Positions 42,307-51,760 are shown, counted from the first letter of the stretch. The stretch is 64,000 nucleotides of DNA from Nitrospirota bacterium (GCA_021840255.1 JAKBYX010000007.1:1-64000); one strand, 5' to 3'. The notes: a model not told the origin generated them from the sequence alone. Made by a program: numbers and translations.

Positions 42307-42800
42307 CGCAAAAAAATCTCCCTGGTCATTGGTTATCGAAACATTTTAACACAATGGGACAGCTTGTGTGCCGCTGGCGTATTCGAATCTTTATTGGACT
42401 GCATCACCCTTTTTTTGCAGTTTTTTGTTCAAGATAAAGATTTTAACTTCCTATTTTTAAATTGTTTTTTAGCCCAGGCTGTTCAAATCTCCCAATTTTG
42501 CTCAAAAAAAACTCTTTTCCGGCTTCGGCTTTTGAAAAGCCCTTCCAGTCTCATCATAATCCGCCGGGACATGGTACTGTCCACATAAACAGTTTATAAA
42601 ACAGTTTATGTGATGTGTGTATCCGCGGGAATCAGACCGGAGGTAAGGAGTTCAGCGGCCTGGTTTTTTGAGAAAAGCAGAAGGAAACAATACTCACAGT
42701 ACGTCACACCAGGCAGAAGATAGGACTTTTTGTATGTTTCTAACGGAATTTGTTGTGCGACCACTGCCAGGCGGGTAGAATTTTTACCTGCTGAACCAGA
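42307..42800. other. Gap between ileS and the toxin-antitoxin remnants
   Basis: About 490 bases without an intact gene. It is AT-rich, holds a cluster of palindromes at 42567-42612, and near its right end (42784-42813, minus strand) a nine-codon frame MAELIWFSR that resembles the first residues of a ParE/RelE toxin and then stops. This marks the left border of the accessory island. Confidence 0.55.
42567..42612. repeat. Adjacent palindromes, possible mobile-element end
   Basis: GGACA (42567-42571)/TGTCC (42578-42582) is directly followed by CACATAAAC (42582-42590)/GTTTATGTG (42604-42612), a perfect 9-base inverted repeat that also contains two direct AGTTTAT copies. Such stacked palindromes occur at ends of insertion sequences and as operators. 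No transposase adjoins it. Confidence 0.4.
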
Positions 42801-42947
42801 TCAGTTCTGCCATTTTTTTGAGAGTCTTTCATCAGCTTCCTTGTGCGGAACTGTTTTGCCCTCAGCGATATCTATTTCCCCAGCCTCGATCTTTTGAAGG
42901 AGATATAGCCGGTTCATTAAGTCTTCCACGTCCAACTTTTCGGGCAT
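42801..42947 (-). CDS. Small antitoxin-like protein (orphan)
   Basis: A 48-residue frame beginning MPEKLDVEDLMNRLYLLQKI and ending KEADERLSKKWQN. The EAGEIDIAEGKTVPHKEA segment resembles the C-terminal half of small antitoxins that pair with ParE/RelE toxins. The partner seems lost: an overlapping ATG at 42813 opens a toxin-like MAELIW start that terminates after nine codons. Upstream it overlaps the end of the frameshifted RelE gene. Confidence 0.55.
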   Translation of the reverse strand: MPEKLDVEDLMNRLYLLQKIEAGEIDIAEGKTVPHKEADERLSKKWQN

Positions 42948-43233
42948 GACCTATCAATCCAATATCGCGGTTCTCTATGCAGATGGGCGACCGCAACGAC
43001 AAGAATGGCTTCTGAATCAATGCCATAGATAACGCCGTAAGGAAAACGCGAAAGCAGGCAACGCCTCAACCCCGCCCAATTTCCGAGCTGGCGAGGGGAT
43101 ACGTCTTAATTCTCCGAATTACTCGGTCAAGGTCATCCAAAAAATACGTCCCCAGTCCCTGTGACTGAGATTGATACCAGGCGACAGCATCATCCAACTC
43201 AGCTTGGGCAGGTATTAAAAAAAGGACCTTCAT
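42917..43233 (-). pseudogene. RelE/ParE-family toxin, frameshifted
   Basis: From ATG 43233 the frame reads [20 protein letters not shown] as in RelE/ParE toxins, then ends at an in-frame TGA (43068-43066) after EIGRG. The family continues in the next frame as LRRCLLSRFPYGVIYGI and VAVAHLHREPRYW, down to a TAA at 42919-42917. Adding one G to the run complementary to 43070-43073 would restore a full-length toxin. The start overlaps the antitoxin stop (ATGA), the usual coupling. It is an inactivated or homopolymer-switched toxin. Confidence 0.82.
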
Positions 43234-43451
43234 CTGGCCCGGTGTTTTCCCATTACCTGTTCATAAGGTACAGTCTCTACCTTGCCGGCCTTATAAGCTT
43301 CCCAGCGTTTGCGAGCCTCGTCGGCCCATACACGATCAATTTCGGGATCGGGCCTATCCAATTGCGTTAAAATCGAGTCCACAAGCTCTATTTTCTCTGT
43401 GTCCGGGAGAGTTTTTATTTTTTCTGCCAGCTCTTTGCTAATAGTCCCCAT
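43230..43451 (-). CDS. Addiction-module antitoxin component
   Basis: A 73-residue protein starting [20 protein letters not shown]. The [17 protein letters not shown] helix followed by [19 protein letters not shown] and a basic end fits the family of putative addiction-module components (about 70 residues) that pair with RelE/ParE toxins. It overlaps the frameshifted toxin by four bases. Antitoxins commonly bind and repress their own promoter. Intact, so it may persist because the toxin was active until recently or because it answers a toxin elsewhere. Confidence 0.8.
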
Positions 43452-43635
43452 AATGAACTCCTTTCAAATATAGTTTAACCGTCTCTGGACTGAAAACAGA
43501 AATGCCCTCCACTATCAGGGCCGCATTCACGAAAACAGGGCAACCAGCCTCCTTAGGCAAAAACTCTCGGGCAAAGGTGGTCTTCCCCGCGCCGTTAGGC
43601 CCAGCGATGATGACTATTTTTTTGTTTTCACTCAT
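43438..43635 (-). pseudogene. Zeta-toxin-like P-loop kinase, N-terminal remnant
   Basis: A 65-residue frame starting [20 protein letters not shown], the P-loop of the zeta toxin/predicted ATPase family, and continuing [20 protein letters not shown]. Family members run to about 190 residues; here the similarity ends near FSPE, and the frame closes inside the antitoxin start. The family's catalytic Asp next to VNAD is Ala (VNAALI). A decayed relic. Confidence 0.75.
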
Positions 43636-43774
43636 ATTTCACAAAAAATGAATAGTTCTATTTTAATTTTTTGTCATGGCAGCTTATTTTTTCAGTTTCT
43701 TGCGGGAAAAATAGAACCGTCCCTTTTTATTCTTGCCCTTTATTTCGGCTTTAAAGCGTTCTCTTGCCTCGGCT
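43636..43774. other. Spacer with inverted repeat TTCTATTTT/AAAATAGAA
   Basis: TTCTATTTT (43656-43664) and AAAATAGAA (43708-43716) form an inverted repeat, and CGGCTTTAA occurs twice (near 43747 and 43772). The stretch lies at the 3' end of the truncated LysM/RHS gene and probably marks a deletion or insertion scar. Confidence 0.35.
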
Positions 43775-44656
43775 TTAAGACTCTGTTACGGACGTCAGAT
43801 TGTTGTTTGAATCGTATCCATATTTTGTGGTCGCCCCGGTGGAATCCGAATAGGATACAAGATTGCCGTTGACAAACTGATACGTGGCCGGGTCCAGGCT
43901 TGTCGTTGTATTGGTGCTCGTGGGCAAGGTTATCTGCTGCCCGGCGTATATCATGTTCGCTTTTGTTATGTCTGGATTCGCCTTCATAAGGGCTTCCATG
44001 GTGGTCCCGAACTTGTTGGCGATATCCGACAATGTATTGCCTGCTTGAACAACGTAAACCCCCGTGCTTTCTGCCTGCTGAACTGCGGCGGCAGTGACTT
44101 GCGTGAATTGCCAACTGGCGATTGACTGGGACGTGGTCGCGTCGTAGGTGCCTGCCAGGCCGCCAGGAGTGGGAGTAGTAGTAAAGCCCGTGGGCGCTGT
44201 CAAATTGGAGAGCAGAATATTTGAAGATGCCGGACTGGCAAAGAAATTTGACAAATCGGACTGAAGGTTCTGTATCAGGCTATATGTCTGCCCATTTAGC
44301 CATGTGTCAAAATCATATAGTGCACCGCCGAATTTTTCGCCTGCCAATGTCGAAAAAGTGTCAATGCCTGCCGCAATCCAGGGTGAAGCCGCAGGATCGT
44401 CTGCTAATGTTGCGGCAGACAATCCTACGATGATTTCACTTCCTACCTTGGCAATAGCCGCAGATGAAGAATACCCTTGACTGATAAAATCGTTATAATC
44501 AGTAACGGCTGTTACCCCTAACATCCCCGCCGAACCAACTCCCTTATATGCTAATGTAAGTCCCGTGGAAGTTCCTATAAAACGCAAAAAATTCGCGCCT
44601 ACGCTGATAAAATAACTATTCAGTGCGTCTGCAATATCTATTGCCGTAGACCCCAT
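43775..44656 (-). CDS. LysM/RHS-repeat protein, copy A (C-terminally truncated)
   Basis: A 293-residue protein. Residues 1-150 are hydrophobic and Gly/Ala/Ser-rich without a cleavable signal peptide; 150-195 is a Thr/Pro-rich linker (TTPTPGGLAG); 198-245 is a LysM domain (YVVQAGNTLSDIANKFGTT), which binds peptidoglycan or chitin-like glycans; 250-290 is one RHS/YD-type repeat (KYGYDSNNNLTSV) at which the frame stops. Copy B (46927-47805) continues into many more RHS repeats, so this copy has lost its C-terminal part. AGGAGG precedes the ATG. Third gene of a riboswitch-led operon; function unknown, possibly a cell-wall-anchored effector. Confidence 0.7.
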   Translation of the reverse strand: MGSTAIDIADALNSYFISVGANFLRFIGTSTGLTLAYKGVGSAGMLGVTAVTDYNDFISQGYSSSAAIAKVGSEIIVGLSAATLADDPAASPWIAAGIDTFSTLAGEKFGGALYDFDTWLNGQTYSLIQNLQSDLSNFFASPASSNILLSNLTAPTGFTTTPTPGGLAGTYDATTSQSIASWQFTQVTAAAVQQAESTGVYVVQAGNTLSDIANKFGTTMEALMKANPDITKANMIYAGQQITLPTSTNTTTSLDPATYQFVNGNLVSYSDSTGATTKYGYDSNNNLTSVTES

Positions 44657-44677
44657 TTTGACCTCCTCGTGTATTTC

Positions 44678-45316
44678 TCATGTCGTAAAATAAACTTTTT
44701 TGTTTTTTTCAGGAATCCTGTTTAAATAATCATCTAGCAACTTTTTTAATTGAGAATCCAATATCATATTTCTACTATCAAAGATTTCGATTTTCATCCC
44801 TTTCTGGTCATCATATAACCAGAAGACGATCTGTTTAGAACTTTTAACTAGCCAAACATGATTATTCAATATGAATTTTTTCGAACCATAAATGTCATTT
44901 TCCAAAATTACCGTGTTTTTAAAAAAGAGAACTCTTTTGTTATAAAATTTTATGGATCGTAAACCCAACCATATTAAAAACACGAAGCTATCGATTTTCA
45001 TTGCCCAGTAGTAAAGAACATACGATTGCGCTTTGCTCAATGAAAAAAAGGGTCTATACATCGCGTCCTGAGCGGCTGTTGATCTAGCCGCATAAAAAAA
45101 CATATATACTGCAGCCAGAAGAAGAAATACTTGCCCACGACGAAACATTTGCTTGTATTCCAAAATCAGTATAGGCTGCTCGGTTTCACCAATAATCGTT
45201 TTTTTCCCCAAGCTTGATATTTTGTAAAGCAAATATTTAAAGAAATCAGGGAGAGAACTGATTAAAAGAAATACAAACATCGGCATCAATATCAATATAA
45301 TAAGGCTTGCACTCAT
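44678..45316 (-). CDS. Membrane protein of unknown family, copy A
   Basis: A 212-residue protein with hydrophobic segments at about 3-25, 60-82 and 95-120, then a soluble C-terminal domain of about 90 residues rich in beta pattern (KVLFFKN-like start, WLVKSSKQIVFWLYDD, MKIEIF) and ending in a helical, Lys-rich tail. It is clearly paralogous to the protein at 47830-48489: both share LEY, MYR-FF, QSY-LYYWA-KIDS, NN-VWLVK and the PEK-KK end. Both are followed by a LysM/RHS gene. Base composition is visibly more AT-rich than the flanking core genes. Possible roles are immunity or export of the LysM/RHS protein; unproven. Confidence 0.7.
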   Translation of the reverse strand: MSASLIILILMPMFVFLLISSLPDFFKYLLYKISSLGKKTIIGETEQPILILEYKQMFRRGQVFLLLAAVYMFFYAARSTAAQDAMYRPFFSLSKAQSYVLYYWAMKIDSFVFLIWLGLRSIKFYNKRVLFFKNTVILENDIYGSKKFILNNHVWLVKSSKQIVFWLYDDQKGMKIEIFDSRNMILDSQLKKLLDDYLNRIPEKNKKVYFTT

Positions 45317-45426
45317 TTTATACCTTCTGCTCCTTCCGGCATGCCGGAAACTTTGTTTCCAAATACTTCTTCACCCGGCTCGCTCAATCCGTTAGCGAGG
45401 CCCGTTGGAGATATTTGATTTGCCAT
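45313..45426 (-). CDS. 37-residue peptide, first gene of operon A
   Basis: ATG at 45426 is preceded by AGGAGGGG at good distance. The frame reads MANQISPTGLANGLSEPGEE and ends EGAEGIK; the TGA overlaps the ATG of the membrane protein (ATGA). The peptide is Gly/Glu-rich with no membrane segment. It is the first coding sequence after the riboswitch terminator, so it may be a leader or a real small protein. No family recognised. Confidence 0.6.
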   Translation of the reverse strand: MANQISPTGLANGLSEPGEEVFGNKVSGMPEGAEGIK

Positions 45427-45515
45427 TTTTCCCCTCCTAAGACTTTCTTAAAAAAACAAAAATCTTTTTTAAAATAAAAACTTAATACTTTTAAAATTCA
45501 CCCTCCCATAAACGC

Positions 45516-45542
45516 AAAAAGCCCGCCTTCGAAAAGGTGGGC
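45516..45542 (-). terminator. Riboswitch-linked terminator, copy A
   Basis: On the minus strand GCCCACCTT, a TTCG loop and AAGGCGGGC (one mismatch) are followed by TTTTT (plus-strand A run 45516-45520). It lies about 15 bases after the aptamer and about 90 bases before the first start codon, the layout of a transcriptional riboswitch expression platform. Confidence 0.85.
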
Positions 45543-45556
45543 TTCCAAAAAAATTT

Positions 45557-45643
45557 CAGCCATTTCGACGGCCCCTCTACCCTTATTCAGGGCAGGTAGC
45601 TTTGCGCCGCCCGGTTACCCGGGGTTTGCCTTTTCGCTGGCTC
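45557..45643 (-). ncRNA. c-di-GMP-I (GEMM)-like riboswitch aptamer, copy A
   Basis: The minus strand shows GGCAAACC, then a stem CCCGG-GTAA-CCGGG with GNRA loop, then GGCGCAAAGC, the ordered hallmarks of the GEMM/c-di-GMP-I class. A second stem follows (CTACC...GGTAG), then GGGG, and the outer stem AGCCA/TGGCT closes the domain. The 3' part is less like the classic aptamer, so a variant specificity (for example cGAMP) or a new subclass is possible. A terminator follows directly. Ligand binding is inferred, not shown. Confidence 0.65.
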
Positions 45644-45670
45644 TGCAATTAAAAATTGCAAGCTGCCTCT

Positions 45671-45699
45671 ATTAAGCAGAATTGCTTTTAGATTGTCAA
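45671..45699 (-). promoter_or_regulatory. Promoter of operon A
   Basis: On the minus strand TTGACA (45699-45694) is followed after 17 bases by CTTAAT (45676-45671) with TG just ahead of it. Transcription would begin near 45664, about 20 bases before the aptamer. Confidence 0.8.
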
Positions 45700-45764
45700 G
45701 CATTTTTTCGAAAATTTTTATCGAATTTTGAAACAGATTTCTTGCTAATTTTCATTCGTAATCT

Positions 45765-46907
45765 TCACACTGCAGGAAAGCCCGCAAGCGCGCCCCCCAG
45801 GGAGTGCCCTGTGACATAGATGGGGTTCCCCTGGGCAATCGTCTCCACCTGGGCCGCAAAGTCCAGCGCGGAGGTATTGGCGCCAAAGCTCTGGCCCGTT
45901 TGGATAGCTTGCTCATCCGCCATCTGCCCCTTGAAAAAAGCCTGGTTGACCCCCGCCGCTGAAGACGTTGAAGACGATGAAGAGGAAACATTGCCTAAAT
46001 TCGTGCCTTCATACGCGATGACGATCTGGTGGGTGGTATCATTCTGGAAAGCGGCCGCCTGCATCCCGTTTGAAAGAGATACGTACGCGGGCGTTCCATC
46101 ATCAAACTTCATTAAGGACCAGCCCTGAGGCGGTGTTGGTGCCCCGGCGTTGGCAAGTCCATAAATAGCGGTGCTCAGAGTGAGATAATCGGCGGCGGTG
46201 GGATTCGAAGTGATGTTATTATGAACGGTAACGTTCCCGCTGGAATCCGTGTCCACTTCAGTGACCAAGCTCCCTGAAGGATTGTATTGGTCGCTTGTGC
46301 TGGAAATGAAATTGCCGTTGGAGTCAAAATTCGTTGTGGTTTTTGTTAAGCCGATTGAGCTGGAGTAATATTCCGTGCTGCTTTCATAAGAATTTACAAT
46401 ATAGTCGGTAGAAATTACAGCCCCGGTTGGATCGGTCTTGGTTTCCGTGCTCGTTAACAAATTATGGTTTGCGTCAAATGTATTAGACGTGGTATCCGTA
46501 CCATTTTGATCGGTGTAAGTGCTTTCTGTAAGATTGCCGTTGGGATCATATTTATTATTCAGGGAGCTGATTGTATTGCCGCTCTGGTCCTGCTGGACGC
46601 TCGTCAGCACGTTGCCGTTTAAATCGTAAGTATTCTCTGTTGTCGTTTTATAGCCGCTTAATTCGGTGTAGGTCTCAACGGATGAGCTAAGGACATTATT
46701 TGAATAAGTAAAGACATTATTATCCGTGTTTCCGTATGAATCCGTATAGCTGCTTTCGGTAATTTGCCCGTTCGAATATGTGTTTATCAGGGAGCTGAGC
46801 GTCTTCCCGTTCTGGTCCGTTTGGATACATGTGAGCAGATTACCGCTTGTGTCGTATGTGTTCGCAGTAACAATGCCGTTTGGAGCGGTATAGGTGGCCG
46901 ATATCAT
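45765..46907 (-). pseudogene. RHS-repeat/lipase-like C-terminal part of copy B (frameshifted and truncated)
   Basis: A 380-residue open frame that continues the LysM/RHS gene 46927-47805 in another frame. It has about ten YD/RHS-like repeats (NTYD--GN-L-S, NKYDPNGNLTE), then a lipase-like domain with IVIAYEGTNLG and the nucleophile elbow GHSLGG, and stops nine residues later with AGFPAV. Class 3 lipase domains need a further 60-100 residues with Asp and His, so the catalytic triad is incomplete. Reading frames join if one C is removed near 46930. The stop codon lies inside the duplicated repeat, which implies truncation by recombination. Confidence 0.72.
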
Positions 46908-46926
46908 GTTATTGGATGAGTCGTAT

Positions 46927-47805
46927 TTATAGGTAGTTATCGCTGGGGTCAGTTATTGACGTCAGATTGTAATTTGAATCGTAACCATATTTGGTGGTCG
47001 CCCCGGTCGAGTCCGTATAGGATACAAGATTGCCGTTGACAAACTGATAGGAGGCCGGGTCCAGGCTTGTCGTTGTATTGGTGCTCGTGGGCAAGGTTAT
47101 TTGCTGGCCAGCGTATATCATATTCGAATTTGTTATATCGGGATTCGCCTCCATAAGGGCTTCCATTGTGGTCCCGAACTGCTTGGCGATATCGGATAAT
47201 GTATTGCCGGCTTGCACAACGTAATACCCGGAACTCTCAGCCTGCTGAACAGCCGATGCGGTAACGGGTGTGAATTGCCAGGTGGCGATTGACTGGGACG
47301 TGGTTGTGTTGTAGGTGCCTGCCAGGCCGCCAGGAGTGGGAGTGGGGGTGGCCGTGAAACCGGTCGGCGCAGATAAGTAACCAAGCAGTATATTGGACGA
47401 TGTCGGGCTAGCAAAGAGGTTTGATAAACGGGTTTGCAGAGCAATACCTGACTCCGTACCAAAGTATGCAGCTATTCCAGTGGCTGCAGCTACAGGAATT
47501 GCAATATAGGGATTATCCATGGCGAGGTCGAAGAGAGAGGCAGTTCCTTTTATACCAGCGGCAGCCGCAAGTCCCCCTAAAACTCCACATCCTACTTTGG
47601 CGATTGCATCGCTAAGAGTATCCCCATTGTTAACATAGTAATCAATTTCGCCCACGCTTATAAAAGCAAGTATAGGCCCCGTCATCATTCCCGTAGCAAG
47701 AACTTGTACACCTTCTGGAGTTGCTGTTGTTTTTAAAGCGTCTCCCACCCAAGTCGAAAAAAACGTCTCAAGTGAGCCCGCAATGTCCACTGGTTGAGTA
47801 CCCAT
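46927..47805 (-). CDS. LysM/RHS-repeat protein, copy B (N-terminal part)
   Basis: A 292-residue frame: a hydrophobic Gly/Ala-rich N-terminal region (1-140) diverged from copy A, a Thr/Pro linker, a LysM domain (YVVQAGNTLSDIAKQFGTT, about 197-245) nearly identical to copy A, and the first RHS repeat. It ends at SDNYL with a TAA; just past it, frame +1 continues TYKYDSSNNM-like sequence into the 45765-46907 frame. The stop is therefore best explained by a single-base insertion. AAGGAGGGG precedes the ATG. Together the two frames would encode a LysM-RHS-lipase protein of about 680 residues. Confidence 0.72.
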   Translation of the reverse strand: MGTQPVDIAGSLETFFSTWVGDALKTTATPEGVQVLATGMMTGPILAFISVGEIDYYVNNGDTLSDAIAKVGCGVLGGLAAAAGIKGTASLFDLAMDNPYIAIPVAAATGIAAYFGTESGIALQTRLSNLFASPTSSNILLGYLSAPTGFTATPTPTPGGLAGTYNTTTSQSIATWQFTPVTASAVQQAESSGYYVVQAGNTLSDIAKQFGTTMEALMEANPDITNSNMIYAGQQITLPTSTNTTTSLDPASYQFVNGNLVSYTDSTGATTKYGYDSNYNLTSITDPSDNYL

Positions 47806-47829
47806 TTTGCCCCTCCTTAAGTTATATCT

Positions 47830-48489
47830 CTAAACCCCATATGCAATAAATTTTTTCTTTTTTTCCGGCACCTTACTTAAAAAGTCGTTCAGCAATCTCT
47901 CCTTCTGGTCATCCAATATCATTAACTTTCTGCTAAATATCGAAATTTTCATTTCCTTCGCGCTGTCATATAGACAATAAGCATTATGATTTGCATTTTT
48001 AACAAGCCAAACGTTATTATTCAGGCCGAATCTTCTGGACCAGAAATAATTTTTACGAATGATTCCATTCTTAAAAAAAAGGACTTTGCCATAAAAAGAT
48101 TTAAAAAGCAAATATACCAAAGAAATTACTGCAACAGAACTGTCTATTTTCCATGCCCAGTAATAGAGAATGTATGATTGTCCCGCAGTCAGGAAAAAAA
48201 AATGCCTATACATATCCCCGCGCGCACCAGAAGCGGCAGAAAAGAAACTACCTAAGAAAAGCGCAAGAAAAGCTATGAGTAAGCATTGGCCTTTCAGCAA
48301 CTGGCTTTTGTTATACTCCAAAACTAACAGGGGCGATTCACCTTGTCCAATGCTAAACCCGTTTTCTTCGCCGATGTGCTTAATCCGATATCTCATATGT
48401 TTAAAAAGTAGAGCAAGCGCTCTGATTGACCCATGTAAGAATATAGGCATTGATAACACAAGGACTAAACTAATACTAAAAAATGTCAT
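47830..48489 (-). CDS. Membrane protein of unknown family, copy B
   Basis: A 219-residue paralogue of the 44678-45316 protein. Hydrophobic segments lie at about 4-28, 68-90 and 100-130; the soluble C-terminal part shares VLFFKN, LNN-VWLVKN, MKISIF and the PEKKKK end. It starts 24 bases upstream of the LysM/RHS gene and follows a 32-residue peptide gene whose stop lies two bases before its ATG; AGGAG is close by. The conserved pairing of this family with LysM/RHS genes in both operons argues for a shared function such as immunity, anchoring or export. Confidence 0.7.
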   Translation of the reverse strand: MTFFSISLVLVLSMPIFLHGSIRALALLFKHMRYRIKHIGEENGFSIGQGESPLLVLEYNKSQLLKGQCLLIAFLALFLGSFFSAASGARGDMYRHFFFLTAGQSYILYYWAWKIDSSVAVISLVYLLFKSFYGKVLFFKNGIIRKNYFWSRRFGLNNNVWLVKNANHNAYCLYDSAKEMKISIFSRKLMILDDQKERLLNDFLSKVPEKKKKFIAYGV

Positions 48490-48491
48490 CT

Positions 48492-48590
48492 CTAGCTCCT
48501 GCCAAATCTTCTTTCATATACATCCCAGTCGTCAATATCATCAAAAATAAAACTTAGACTCCTATTATTCTCACATTCCTGTCTTATCAT
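48492..48590 (-). CDS. 32-residue acidic peptide, operon B
   Basis: ATG 48590 lies inside the end of the DUF3467 gene; the frame reads MIRQECENNRSLSFIFDDID and ends YERRFGRS. It occupies the same place before the membrane protein gene as the 37-residue peptide of operon A, but the two are not alike in sequence. Coupled translation is plausible since start and stop overlap or touch the neighbours. Real expression is uncertain. Confidence 0.4.
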   Translation of the reverse strand: MIRQECENNRSLSFIFDDIDDWDVYERRFGRS

Positions 48591-48921
48591 CTTTTCGGCT
48601 TTCCCCGGCAGCGGCCTTCGAAGATATTTCAAGTATCCCGTTGTTTGCCTCATATCTCCGGATAAGATCGCCCATAGCTATTGCAAGCCGTTTTGCGGTC
48701 TTCAAAGAAACCGCAACCTTCGATTCAATGCGCACCACGCCCGGATCCATCGATAGATTGCCGAAACCCAAATAAACTTCCTCCGCTCCGAAATTGATAT
48801 TGAATACGCCCGCGTACTGCGTCTGAACCCTTTCTTCTGTAAAACGTATCTGTCTCTGCTTTACCGGCCCATGATTCTGTTTTTCAGTTTGCTGATTTTG
48901 AGGTTTGGCAGCTTTTTCCAT
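48571..48921 (-). CDS. DUF3467 family protein
   Basis: A 116-residue protein whose core (QYAGVFNINFGAEEVYLGF to LKTAKRLAIAMGDLI) matches the DUF3467 family, beta strands followed by one helix. The N-terminus is Gln/Lys-rich and the C-terminus Ser/Lys-rich. DUF3467 proteins are small and uncharacterised. It is the first gene after riboswitch B; operon A has no equivalent. AAGGAGA precedes the ATG. Confidence 0.8.
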   Translation of the reverse strand: MEKAAKPQNQQTEKQNHGPVKQRQIRFTEERVQTQYAGVFNINFGAEEVYLGFGNLSMDPGVVRIESKVAVSLKTAKRLAIAMGDLIRRYEANNGILEISSKAAAGESRKDDKTGM

Positions 48922-49032
48922 AATGATTTCTCCTTCTTGCTCTCGCAGGCATTGAAATCAAAACCGATTAAATCGGTTCACGATAAAATAAAAACTTAAT
49001 ACTTTTAAAATTCATATCCCTCCCATAAACGC

Positions 49033-49059
49033 AAAAAGCCCGCCTTCGAAAAGGTGGGC
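49033..49059 (-). terminator. Riboswitch-linked terminator, copy B
   Basis: Same hairpin as in copy A: GCCCACCTT, TTCG, AAGGCGGGC, then TTTTT on the minus strand (plus-strand A run 49033-49037). It lies between the aptamer and the DUF3467 gene. Confidence 0.85.
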
Positions 49060-49073
49060 TTCCAAAAAAATTT

Positions 49074-49160
49074 CAGCCATTTCGGCGGCCCCTCTACCCT
49101 TATTCAGGGCAGGTAGCTTTGCGTCGCCCGGTTACCCGGGGTTTGCCTTTTCGTTGGCTC
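49074..49160 (-). ncRNA. c-di-GMP-I (GEMM)-like riboswitch aptamer, copy B
   Basis: Same architecture as copy A, with GGCAAACC, GTAA-capped stem and GACGCAAAGC. Here the last block matches the GEMM consensus better than copy A (GACGC instead of GGCGC). The outer stem AGCCA/TGGCT is kept in both. Differences between the copies fall mostly in loops and joining regions. Confidence 0.68.
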
Positions 49161-49187
49161 TGCAATTAAAAATTGCGAGCTGCTCCT

Positions 49188-49216
49188 ATTAAGAAGAATT
49201 GCTTTTAGATTGTCAA
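49188..49216 (-). promoter_or_regulatory. Promoter of operon B
   Basis: TTGACA (49216-49211), 17-base spacer and CTTAAT (49193-49188) on the minus strand, identical to the operon A promoter except in the spacer. Confidence 0.8.
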
Positions 49217-49298
49217 GCATTTTTTTTCAAAAATTTCTATCGAATTTTGAAACAGATTTCTTGCTAATTTTCATTCGTAATCTTCACACTGCAGGAAA

Positions 49299-49352
49299 GT
49301 CCGCATGCGCGGACTTAAGGGAGTACTTTAGTATTGGCCGCATGCCCTTAAG
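49299..49352. repeat. Palindromes between riboswitch B and the IS110 element
   Basis: GTCCGCATGCGCGGAC (49299-49314) is a perfect hairpin, followed by CTTAAGGG (49314-49321) and CCCTTAAG (49345-49352). They lie on the 3' side of the transposase and may belong to the end or the target of the insertion element. Confidence 0.5.
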
Positions 49353-49381
49353 CGTGTGGAATGGAAGTCAACTATTCCGCA

Positions 49382-50575
49382 TCACCCCCTCACTTCAAAT
49401 GTTTTCTTGGTTTGCAGCATCGAAAAGATTATGCGAACGAGCTTGTGGGCTGTCGCCAATATAGCCTTTTTAAAGGGAAGTCCTTCGGCCCGCCTTCTTT
49501 GATAATAGGCTCTGAAAATGTTATCCTGCCTGACCACGCAGGAGGTCATCAGATAAACGATATGGCGCAGATGCCTATTGCCCCGTTTTGATATCCTGCT
49601 TTTCCCTTCGAATTTGCCTGACTGCCGGACCGATGGATCGATTCCGACAAAGGCAATCAGATGCTTGTATGAGGGAAACGCTTTGTAATCTCCAATTTCA
49701 GCAAGAAACGAGGAAGCTGTCGTATCCGTTATTCCTCCAATTGAGGTGATAATCTTGATATCGTCGATCATTAAAGCCTGACACGCCTCTACGAGCGCTT
49801 CTGAAATGCGTTCCTTCTGATTTATGAGGTGATCCAAGGTGGCAATCTTCTCCGGAAGAATAAGCTCTTTAGCGGCACTACCAGAGGCCACTGATTTTTT
49901 AGCTAATCCTATCAGTTCATCTGGATCACCAATAACCCTTTTCCGTCCATCAGCATGTGTAAGGGCTTTGACAATATCGTTGCGCTTTGCAGCCCTGACC
50001 ATACGGGCCGATGGGAATTGCTTAAGAAAATCCCTCATTGTCTCGGTGAAGAGCTTCTTACAAAAGGATTCAAGCTCGGGAAAGGTGATCTGCAACATCC
50101 TCTTGATATCGTTTTTTAGACCGGCAATAAGGCACGTGAGAGATTCCTTTTCCTTAGCCAGGTCCTTTATATCCTGCAGATCTTGTACCGGGGCTGCCTT
50201 GGAAAGGGAATCTTTATGAAGCAGCAGAAATTGTGCGATGGTCAGAGCATCTTTTTTATCAGTTTCCGTCTTCCTAAGGGAAAGCTTGGAAAAATTGGCT
50301 ATGAGCAGCGGATTAATAACGAAGCAATTTACTTTCTCTGAGGCCAGAAAACAAAAAAGATTCGAGTGATAACACCCGGTGGACTCCATCGCCGCTGTTA
50401 CTTTGGAAAGGTTTTTACAATGCGCCAGTATTGCGCTCAGAAGCTTTGAAAACCCTTCTGCATTCATCGAAAACTCGATAAAAAAAAGTTTTTCCCCTTC
50501 CGGGCTTAGGCACTGGGCAGTAGATGTATCCTTTGAAACATCAATCCCGACGTAACACGCAGACAATATCCGCAC
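49382..50575 (-). CDS. IS110-family transposase
   Basis: A 397-residue protein with an N-terminal RuvC-like DEDD domain (GIDVSKDT with Asp12, AMESTGCYH with the Glu, KTETDKKDA with Asp residues) and a C-terminal transposase_20 domain containing SIGGITDTTASSFLAEIGD and the conserved Ser region GIDPSVRQSGKFEGK. IS110 enzymes recombine DNA under guidance of a bridge RNA encoded by the element. The gene looks full length and undamaged, so the element may still move. Confidence 0.92.
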   Translation of the reverse strand: MRILSACYVGIDVSKDTSTAQCLSPEGEKLFFIEFSMNAEGFSKLLSAILAHCKNLSKVTAAMESTGCYHSNLFCFLASEKVNCFVINPLLIANFSKLSLRKTETDKKDALTIAQFLLLHKDSLSKAAPVQDLQDIKDLAKEKESLTCLIAGLKNDIKRMLQITFPELESFCKKLFTETMRDFLKQFPSARMVRAAKRNDIVKALTHADGRKRVIGDPDELIGLAKKSVASGSAAKELILPEKIATLDHLINQKERISEALVEACQALMIDDIKIITSIGGITDTTASSFLAEIGDYKAFPSYKHLIAFVGIDPSVRQSGKFEGKSRISKRGNRHLRHIVYLMTSCVVRQDNIFRAYYQRRRAEGLPFKKAILATAHKLVRIIFSMLQTKKTFEVRG

Positions 50576-50800
50576 CCCCTTTAGAAGCTATTATGAGTAA
50601 AGACAGGAATGCCTCCCGACCAAACCTCCATCGTGACAAGGGCTCTTCGGCCCAATCAACCTATCAGGGTTTTGGGAGGCAGGGAACACACTTCAAGAAG
50701 GGTTCAAAGACCCAGGGGTAACCACCGTTCTCCTGCCTTCTGGATGATGGGTAAAACCCATCCGCCAATCATTTATACCATGAACGATGAGTAGGAGGGG
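50576..50800 (-). ncRNA. IS110 5' non-coding region, candidate bridge RNA
   Basis: The 225 bases upstream of the transposase hold no gene but several stem-forming blocks, among them GGGC-TCTTCG-GCCC (50639-50652) and TGCCTCCC (50610-50617)/GGGAGGCA (50684-50691), which enclose it. In the IS110 group the long 5' flank encodes the bridge RNA; a long 5' and short 3' flank, as here, fits that group rather than IS1111. No target or donor loop was matched to the flanks. Confidence 0.4.
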
Positions 50801-51064
50801 TAACAAATTTCTGGTAAGGAAGGGGTCCCGGAGCCTTGGAAAATGCATGTTTCCAGCGTAAATCCTCGGTAGTTTCTTTTTTTGGAAACTGCGGTGTATC
50901 AGGGTATGCAGTGTAAAACGTATGACTTGCCGGTTAAAGTCCGGTCGTGGGAGTTCGGTAGTTTACCCACGTAGCTTGAGGGAGGTGCAAAGGGCAACCT
51001 GAAGCACTAAGTTTCCTGACAAAGGTTCCGAAAGGGAACCCCCTCCAGGCCGTCCAAAGGAGCG

Positions 51065-51388
51065 ATGAAGCACATACGCTCAGAAATCAAGAAACTGACA
51101 ACTGAGCAATATAGTGCGATTCCGACAGAAGCCGTCATCAGAAGAGTCAACGGGGTCGTCAGAGGATGGGTGAACTATTTTTATTATGGCAACTGCACAC
51201 AAGCAATGTCGGCTTTGGAAGAGTATTTGGTCTATAGGATGCGTATATATATGCGCCGGAAACACAAGTTCCGCAGCTATGGATACAAGGCGTTTCCGAA
51301 CAGCTATTATTACGAATCCTTAGGTCTTTACCATGTACCCACGAAAGCTCCATGGACACAATCTGCGAAAACCTCTGGAGGAAGATAA
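51065..51388 (+). pseudogene. Group II intron maturase, C-terminal (X/thumb) fragment
   Basis: A 107-residue frame whose middle part (IPTEAVIRRVNGVVRGWVNY, then MRRKHKFRSYGYKAFPN and YYYESLGLY) is the maturase-specific domain found at the end of group II intron reverse transcriptases. The full protein has about 420 residues; domains 0-7 are absent. The ATG at 51065 follows an AAAGGAG site that probably belonged to the complete gene. Confidence 0.8.
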
Positions 51389-51393
51389 TCGGA

Positions 51394-51426
51394 GAGCTGT
51401 ATTCGGGAAAACCGAACGTCCAGTTC
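51394..51426 (+). ncRNA. Group II intron domain V
   Basis: GAGCTG (51394-51399) pairs with CAGTTC (51421-51426); TTCGG and CCGAA form the distal stem; an ACGT-like bulge lies between. This is the catalytic hairpin of group II introns. The apical loop reads GAAAA instead of the usual GAAA, in line with decay. Domain VI-like sequence follows to about 51480. Confidence 0.65.
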
Positions 51427-51480
51427 GATGAGGGGGAGCCGGAGATAGGGCCGTCCGGCCACTACGCCAGCTCTCTACTC

Positions 51481-51760
51481 TACTGTAAGCCGCAATTACA
51501 GGTCTGCCGTCCAGGCACGACTTCCTGGACGAATCTCTCGTCTATGGCTTGCTGCCAGATGAAGCGGATTTCGCTGCTGGCAACCGTAACAGCGGAGAAA
51601 AAAAGTTCCCCCCGCGAAATCTGATGCAAACCCGAAAGCAATGAATAAAATAAATCCGCAACAAACTAAAGCCGCCATTATCTGGCGGCTTTCAAACGAG
51701 ATCAATTTAATTTTATGCTTCCTCTCCCTGCGGGAGAGGGCCGGCGTGAGGGAGCATTTT
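51481..51760. other. Gap between intron remnant and EF-G2 with palindromes
   Basis: No gene. Stems: GTCCAGG (51509-51515)/CCTGGAC (51524-51530); AGCCGCCA (51670-51677)/TGGCGGCT (51683-51690), whose arms equal the ilvD terminator; and CCTCTCCC-TGC-GGGAGAGG (51721-51739), a widely distributed type of extragenic palindrome, 22 bases from the end of the EF-G2 gene and probably its 3' boundary. Confidence 0.6.

What the first reader, a model, noticed from the sequence alone, without database searches (positions are those of the whole stretch)
43775..49306. Two tandem riboswitch-led operons encoding LysM-RHS(-lipase) proteins and a new membrane-protein family
Each operon has a TTGACA/CTTAAT promoter, a GEMM-like aptamer, a terminator, a tiny peptide gene, a membrane protein of an unrecognised family and a LysM-RHS protein; copy B adds DUF3467 and a lipase-like C-terminus. 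LysM and linker parts are nearly identical between copies while N-terminal hydrophobic regions have diverged, a pattern seen in modular surface effectors. The repeated pairing suggests one functional module under second-messenger control, perhaps a wall-anchored effector with an immunity or export partner. The module as a whole matches no system that I know.
Basis: partly seen in the sequence, partly recalled or inferred. Interest (0 to 1): 0.8.

Follow-up and report, generated by a model that had tools for sequence, protein, structure and literature searches.

The report
Broken c-di-GMP-controlled LysM-RHS operon pair
An uncultured Nitrospirota bacterium carries, on a foreign-looking DNA island, two related operons that are predicted to be switched off by a bacterial signalling molecule and that pair a cell-wall-binding surface protein with a membrane protein of a new, very rare family; the arrangement is real and recurs once elsewhere, but the surface-protein genes seen so far are all broken or shortened.

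Summary
Two c-di-GMP-I riboswitches (58.0 and 51.7 bits) each lead an operon with a three-TM membrane protein (MP) and a LysM-RHS protein; copy B also has DUF3467. MP matches no Pfam, NCBIfam, PHROG, PADLOC or PDB family. A third operon, in another genus of the same Nitrospirota family and at another locus, keeps the order riboswitch > DUF3467 > MP > the same N-terminal domain (NTD). MP and NTD occur together in 3 of 3 loci and nowhere else in 396 phylum genomes; MP is under purifying selection. In five leaders of this type the terminator competes with an antiterminator built on the aptamer's 5' strand, so c-di-GMP is predicted to turn the operons OFF. I read it as a rare c-di-GMP-repressed LysM-RHS-lipase module with a dedicated membrane partner for its NTD, largely decayed here. 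The partner role is inferred.

The parts
49188..49216 (-). putative promoter of operon B (TTGACA, 17 nt, CTTAAT)
   Evidence: sequence; TTGACA at a similar distance from the aptamer in the third locus; not listed by the consensus scan
49081..49157 (-). c-di-GMP-I riboswitch aptamer, operon B
   Evidence: RF01051 58.0 bits
49146..49153 (-). aptamer 5' strand CGAAAAGG, predicted antiterminator arm 1 (B)
49038..49059 (-). intrinsic terminator hairpin of leader B; its 5' arm and loop CCUUUUCG (49047-49054) is antiterminator arm 2
48571..48921 (-). DUF3467 protein, 116 aa
   Evidence: PF11950 E 2.6e-12; 56% identical to third-locus copy
48492..48653 (-). short ORF overlapping the DUF3467 end, just before MP (53 aa); gene status doubtful
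   Evidence: no evident relative in the third locus
47830..48489 (-). membrane protein (MP) B, 219 aa: 3 hydrophobic segments, predicted beta-rich C-terminal domain
46927..47805 (-). NTD - linker - LysM - first RHS repeat, copy B; reading frame ends here
46905..46930 (-). frame break inside the first RHS repeats of copy B
   Evidence: RHS sequence continues in another frame
45765..46907 (-). RHS/YD repeats and truncated Lipase_3 fragment, copy B
45792..45809 (-). GHSLGG nucleophile elbow; nothing of the lipase remains beyond 45765
45671..45699 (-). putative promoter of operon A
45564..45640 (-). c-di-GMP-I riboswitch aptamer, operon A
   Evidence: RF01051 51.7 bits
45521..45542 (-). intrinsic terminator hairpin of leader A; antiterminator arm 2 within it (45530-45537) pairs with 45629-45636
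45313..45426 (-). 37-aa ORF of operon A with strong SD, overlapping the MP start
44678..45316 (-). membrane protein (MP) A, 212 aa
43775..44656 (-). NTD - linker - LysM - one RHS repeat, copy A, then stop
42604..51529 (.). insertion between fusA and ileS that holds both operons, IS110 and intron/toxin-antitoxin remnants
   Evidence: absent from G002, G005 and G008, where fusA and ileS are about 0.15-2.3 kb apart

Best explanation
This is a rare accessory module: a c-di-GMP-I riboswitch (predicted OFF switch) leads an operon for DUF3467, a dedicated inner-membrane protein (MP), and a surface or secreted protein built as NTD - linker - LysM - RHS/YD repeats - lipase. When c-di-GMP is low, the aptamer 5' strand pairs with the terminator's 5' arm and the operon is read; when c-di-GMP is bound, the aptamer holds that strand, the terminator forms and the operon is shut. 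MP works with the NTD, holding or handing over the effector (which has no recognisable Sec signal) at the inner membrane, while LysM anchors it to peptidoglycan and the RHS/lipase end faces outward. The module arrived as an island between fusA and ileS, exists there as two old paralogues whose leaders and LysM/RHS parts were homogenised by recombination, and its effector genes are now decayed in this genome. Shown: the anatomy, the third locus, MP-NTD co-occurrence, the island site, the broken effectors, selection on MP. Inferred: OFF direction (folding only), MP-NTD partnership, export and anchoring.
For: Riboswitches at 3 of 3 loci. Same gene order at a second site in another genus. MP found in 2 of 396 phylum genomes (a third weak match, E 7.5e-4, lies in a glycosyltransferase-like locus and is taken as chance), NTD in the same 2 genomes and the same 3 loci. 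MP B vs A: pS 0.87, pN 0.34, so purifying selection during long divergence; MP and NTD diverged strongly, LysM/RHS much less. Antiterminator is the MFE fold of the transcript up to the terminator 5' arm and loop, and in all five leaders of this type, incl. the third locus and two other riboswitches, the full leader is lowest without it (the margin is only 0.1 kcal/mol in one); outer pair C-G in G008, U-A in two others. The same switching logic is described for C. difficile Cd1 (PMC9262584). Other riboswitches of the family precede extracellular beta-helix-like and lipoprotein-like genes, a fitting regulon.
Against: Only three loci, and none with an intact effector, so the full architecture is a reconstruction from pieces. 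MP and NTD are adjacent, so linkage alone could explain their like divergence. dS is saturated, so selection strength is rough. The complementarity of 8-9 nt is only moderately unlikely (3-5 of 200 shuffles), since UUCG loops and the aptamer consensus GAAAAGG are both common. MP model confidence is middling (pLDDT 69). No secretion system was identified.
Confidence: 0.5

Rival explanations
1. Polymorphic toxin and immunity: the RHS-lipase is an antibacterial toxin and MP is its membrane immunity protein.
For: RHS/YD repeats with C-terminal lipase-like hydrolases and LysM domains are known in polymorphic toxins (PMC3482391); small multi-TM proteins next to such genes are common immunity candidates (general knowledge); Lipase_3 fragment with GHSLGG.
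Against: MP lies upstream of the effector, is kept where the lipase is absent (copy A and third locus), diverges together with the NTD rather than with the RHS end, and its predicted soluble domain looks cytosolic, away from a lipase acting on the periplasmic side (inference). No PADLOC match.
Confidence: 0.2
2. Relic only: decaying surface-protein genes on an island, the co-occurrence of MP and NTD being shared descent with no present function.
For: Frame break and junction truncation in B, early stop in A, truncation beside a transposase in G008; neighbouring IS110, group II intron and toxin-antitoxin fragments; patchy presence, absent from three same-genus genomes.
Against: MP, NTD-LysM frames, SD sites and leaders are intact in both copies, and MP shows purifying selection between copies; random decay would be unlikely to spare MP in all three.
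Confidence: 0.25
3. c-di-GMP-controlled adhesin or matrix protein without toxic action: NTD-LysM-RHS is a wall-bound protein, the lipase being a nutritional enzyme.
For: Riboswitch regulon of the family looks extracellular; LysM and YD repeats also occur in adhesion proteins (general knowledge).
Against: Adhesins are mostly expressed at high c-di-GMP (general knowledge), opposite to the OFF switch predicted here.
Confidence: 0.2

Closest known systems
Cd1-type c-di-GMP-I (GEMM-I) OFF riboswitches, e.g. the C. difficile flagellar operon leader (PMC9262584)
   Same: RF01051 aptamer, terminator that can coexist with the folded aptamer, competing antiterminator
   Different: here the terminator arm is predicted to pair with the 5' aptamer strand (ligand-binding segment) rather than with the 3' aptamer strand; the genes controlled are a LysM-RHS module
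RHS/YD polymorphic toxins with peptidoglycan-binding domains (PMC3482391)
   Same: LysM, RHS repeats, C-terminal alpha/beta-hydrolase
   Different: no classical immunity gene downstream, a new NTD and an upstream membrane protein; c-di-GMP riboswitch; effector broken in every known copy
T6SS RHS effectors with prePAAR-TM domains and Eag chaperones (PMC7773334)
   Same: N-terminal hydrophobic domain with a possible dedicated partner encoded upstream
   Different: no PAAR domain; DUF3467 and MP are not DUF1795 (Eag) by Pfam; DUF3467 fold could not be modelled
YcxB/bacterial PH-like membrane proteins
   Same: predicted order strand - TM hairpin - six strands - C-terminal helix; several weak PDB fold hits are PH-like domains
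   Different: not found by the Pfam YcxB model in this genome; profile comparison with a YcxB protein negative; no significant fold match

Membership tests
c-di-GMP-I riboswitch (RF01051) | covariance-model score above gathering threshold | tested here: met
   58.0 and 51.7 bits vs 35; third locus 58.2
c-di-GMP-I riboswitch (RF01051) | guanine at the ligand-contacting position before CAAACC (G20 of Vc2), which separates c-di-GMP from cAMP-GMP binders | tested here: inconclusive
   GGCAAACC in both copies suggests c-di-GMP; the numbering is from memory and no binding test was possible
transcriptional OFF switch | terminator compatible with bound aptamer, antiterminator exclusive of it | tested here: met
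   constrained folding of five leaders; prediction only
RHS/YD polymorphic toxin | RHS repeats plus C-terminal toxin domain in one protein | tested here: inconclusive
   RHS and Lipase_3 fragment present but in two frames and truncated
RHS/YD polymorphic toxin | adjacent immunity gene downstream | tested here: not met
   downstream of B is operon A's leader; downstream of A are toxin-antitoxin fragments
Lipase_3 | complete catalytic domain (Ser, Asp, His) | tested here: not met
   profile positions 42-79 of 140, ends just after GHSLGG
DUF3467 | Pfam score above cut-off | tested here: met
   47.1 bits vs 25
YcxB / bacterial PH-like membrane protein | profile or fold match | tested here: not met
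   no Pfam hit, hhalign probability 0.2%, best fold E 0.11 with scattered PH-like hits
T6SS Eag-dependent RHS effector | prePAAR/PAAR domain and DUF1795 chaperone | tested here: not met
   no PAAR in either LysM-RHS protein, DUF3467 is not DUF1795
Type I or other secretion substrate | exporter and export signal | not tested

The most novel reading that the evidence does not exclude
MP and the NTD define a new, dedicated membrane-receiver and export-domain pair for non-Sec LysM-RHS effectors, switched by c-di-GMP through a riboswitch whose terminator is controlled directly by the ligand-binding strand of the aptamer.
Probability: 0.15. Interest if true: 0.65.

Novelty: new variant of a known kind. 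Interest (0 to 1): 0.4.

Why it matters
A c-di-GMP riboswitch in front of an RHS-type surface effector was not found in the papers searched (one search returned only two unrelated ones), and MP is a protein family with no match in the libraries used. If the MP-NTD pair is an effector-handling unit, it would be a small, testable system linking the motile/sessile decision to deployment of a wall-bound effector in Nitrospirota. Because all known copies have damaged effectors, its present importance to the organism may be small.

Tried and rejected
MP as YcxB/PH family member: suggested by the model's strand-hairpin-strand order, not supported by profile or fold searches. DUF3467 as an Eag- or SecB-like chaperone: its model was too poor to search (pLDDT 42) and no PDB relative was found. 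Other DUF3467 genes of the order stand next to unrelated genes. A giant LysM-subtilase-RTX protein in G071, also preceded by a small soluble and a membrane protein, shares LysM context only; its membrane protein was not found by the MP profile. The MP hit in G030 is in a glycosyltransferase-like locus and taken as chance. Phage, plasmid and viral-contig searches for MP and a viral-contig search for DUF3467 gave nothing; hits to the LysM protein there were LysM only. A 200-bp '100%' match is only the overlap of the two slices compared. Intact relatives of the RHS-lipase part in the order: none convincing.

Full report
What is there. The window is contig 11 (1-64000) of a 2.2-Mb, 76% complete genome; the relative with the same module is named as a Nitrospirae MAG (JAKAKS010000031.1). 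On the minus strand, operon B reads: putative promoter, c-di-GMP-I aptamer 49081-49157, terminator, DUF3467 (48571-48921), a short ORF, MP (47830-48489), and NTD-linker-LysM-RHS (46927-47805) followed, in another frame, by RHS repeats and a piece of a class-3 lipase (45765-46907). Operon A follows directly: promoter, aptamer 45564-45640, terminator, a 37-aa ORF, MP (44678-45316), NTD-linker-LysM and one RHS repeat (43775-44656).

State of the genes. The copy-B effector is broken twice: a frame break near 46905-46930, and loss of all lipase sequence after GHSLGG, where the coding sequence runs into the leader of operon A. Copy A stops after its first RHS repeat. These could in part be assembly errors of a MAG, which cannot be checked here; but the third locus is also cut after the NTD, next to a REP-type transposase gene.

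How the two copies relate. MP B and A are 43% identical with synonymous differences saturated (pS 0.87) and pN 0.34; NTDs are 31% identical, also near saturation; linker, LysM and RHS have dS 1.05, 0.50 and 0.32; the leaders are about 94% identical. So these are old paralogues whose leader and 3' parts were homogenised later, not a simple recent tandem duplication. The MP numbers indicate purifying selection.

Distribution. MP was sought with a three-sequence profile in all 176 genomes of the order held, in 396 of the phylum, and with peptide patterns in 84,980 species: only this genome (two) and G008 (one) have it. The NTD gave the same three loci and nothing else. Three genomes of the same genus and a congener of G008 lack MP. 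In G002, G005 and G008 fusA and ileS are neighbours, whereas in the window about 9 kb lies between them: the module sits in an insertion with IS110, group II intron pieces and toxin-antitoxin fragments. In G008 it sits elsewhere, near a nadA-like gene.

Control. In each of five leaders that share this layout (window B, window A, G008, the own-genome contig-26 riboswitch and one in G003), the aptamer 5' strand CGAAAAGG is complementary to CCUUUUCG, the 5' arm and loop of the terminator. Folding the transcript up to that point gives the antiterminator as the minimum; folding the full leader gives a lower minimum without it, by 0.1-3.1 kcal/mol. The 5' strand includes nucleotides of the ligand pocket, so binding and antitermination should exclude one another while binding and termination do not. 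This is the logic described for the OFF switch Cd1 (PMC9262584). The outer pair changes from C-G to U-A among leaders, slight covariation support. The prediction is an OFF switch; confidence moderate.

Proteins. MP has three hydrophobic segments in all three members. Its model (pLDDT 69, three-sequence alignment) has a long first helix, a short strand, a TM hairpin, six strands and a C-terminal helix. Positive residues flank the membrane segments on the side of the strands, suggesting a cytosolic domain (inference). The order resembles YcxB/PH-like membrane proteins, but no profile or fold search confirmed it, so it is left as a new family. The effector NTDs contain moderately hydrophobic, glycine-rich stretches and no recognisable Sec signal by eye. 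DUF3467 is a family of unknown function; the library of papers holds one mention of it.

Interpretation. MP follows the NTD, not the lipase: it is retained wherever the NTD is, with or without LysM, RHS or lipase. I therefore prefer a role as dedicated membrane partner of the NTD (holding, export or anchoring) over immunity. The whole module would then deploy a peptidoglycan-bound RHS-lipase protein when c-di-GMP is low. The anatomy and distribution are shown; the functional steps are inference.

Judgement. The module is a real, recurrent and apparently undescribed combination, built mostly of known parts, with one new protein family and a tidy predicted switch. The small number of loci and the damaged effectors limit its weight.

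Noticed in passing
window 49382-50575: IS110-family-like transposase gene directly upstream of operon B, part of the island between fusA and ileS.
   Followed up: partly
window 50927-51483: Group II intron pieces (RF02003 62.5 bits, RF00029 42.3 bits) around a maturase C-terminal remnant, without most of the reverse transcriptase.
   Followed up: no
window 43066-43635: Fragments of toxin-antitoxin genes: PF09720 antitoxin (E 5.5e-17), a short RelE-like piece and a truncated zeta/AAA-like P-loop ORF.
   Followed up: partly
L011 (G000:C26:45763-45838) and L082 (G003:C79): Two further c-di-GMP-I riboswitches share the same terminator/antiterminator layout (10-nt complementarity, 0 of 200 shuffles) but precede unrelated genes.
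   Followed up: partly
L078 (G008:C4:6446): A c-di-GMP-I riboswitch before a large beta-helix lipoprotein-like gene has a 13-nt stretch downstream that is fully complementary to the aptamer core (GAAAAGGTAAACC), an unusually long anti-aptamer.
   Followed up: no
L090 (G071:C16): A protein of over 2,000 aa with LysM, cadherin-like, subtilase, P-domain and RTX repeats, preceded by a small soluble and a 3-TM-like membrane protein of no known family.
   Followed up: partly
G168, G170, G175 and others: Some genomes of this order carry 10-15 c-di-GMP-I riboswitches, others none; 84 of 176 have at least one.
   Followed up: no
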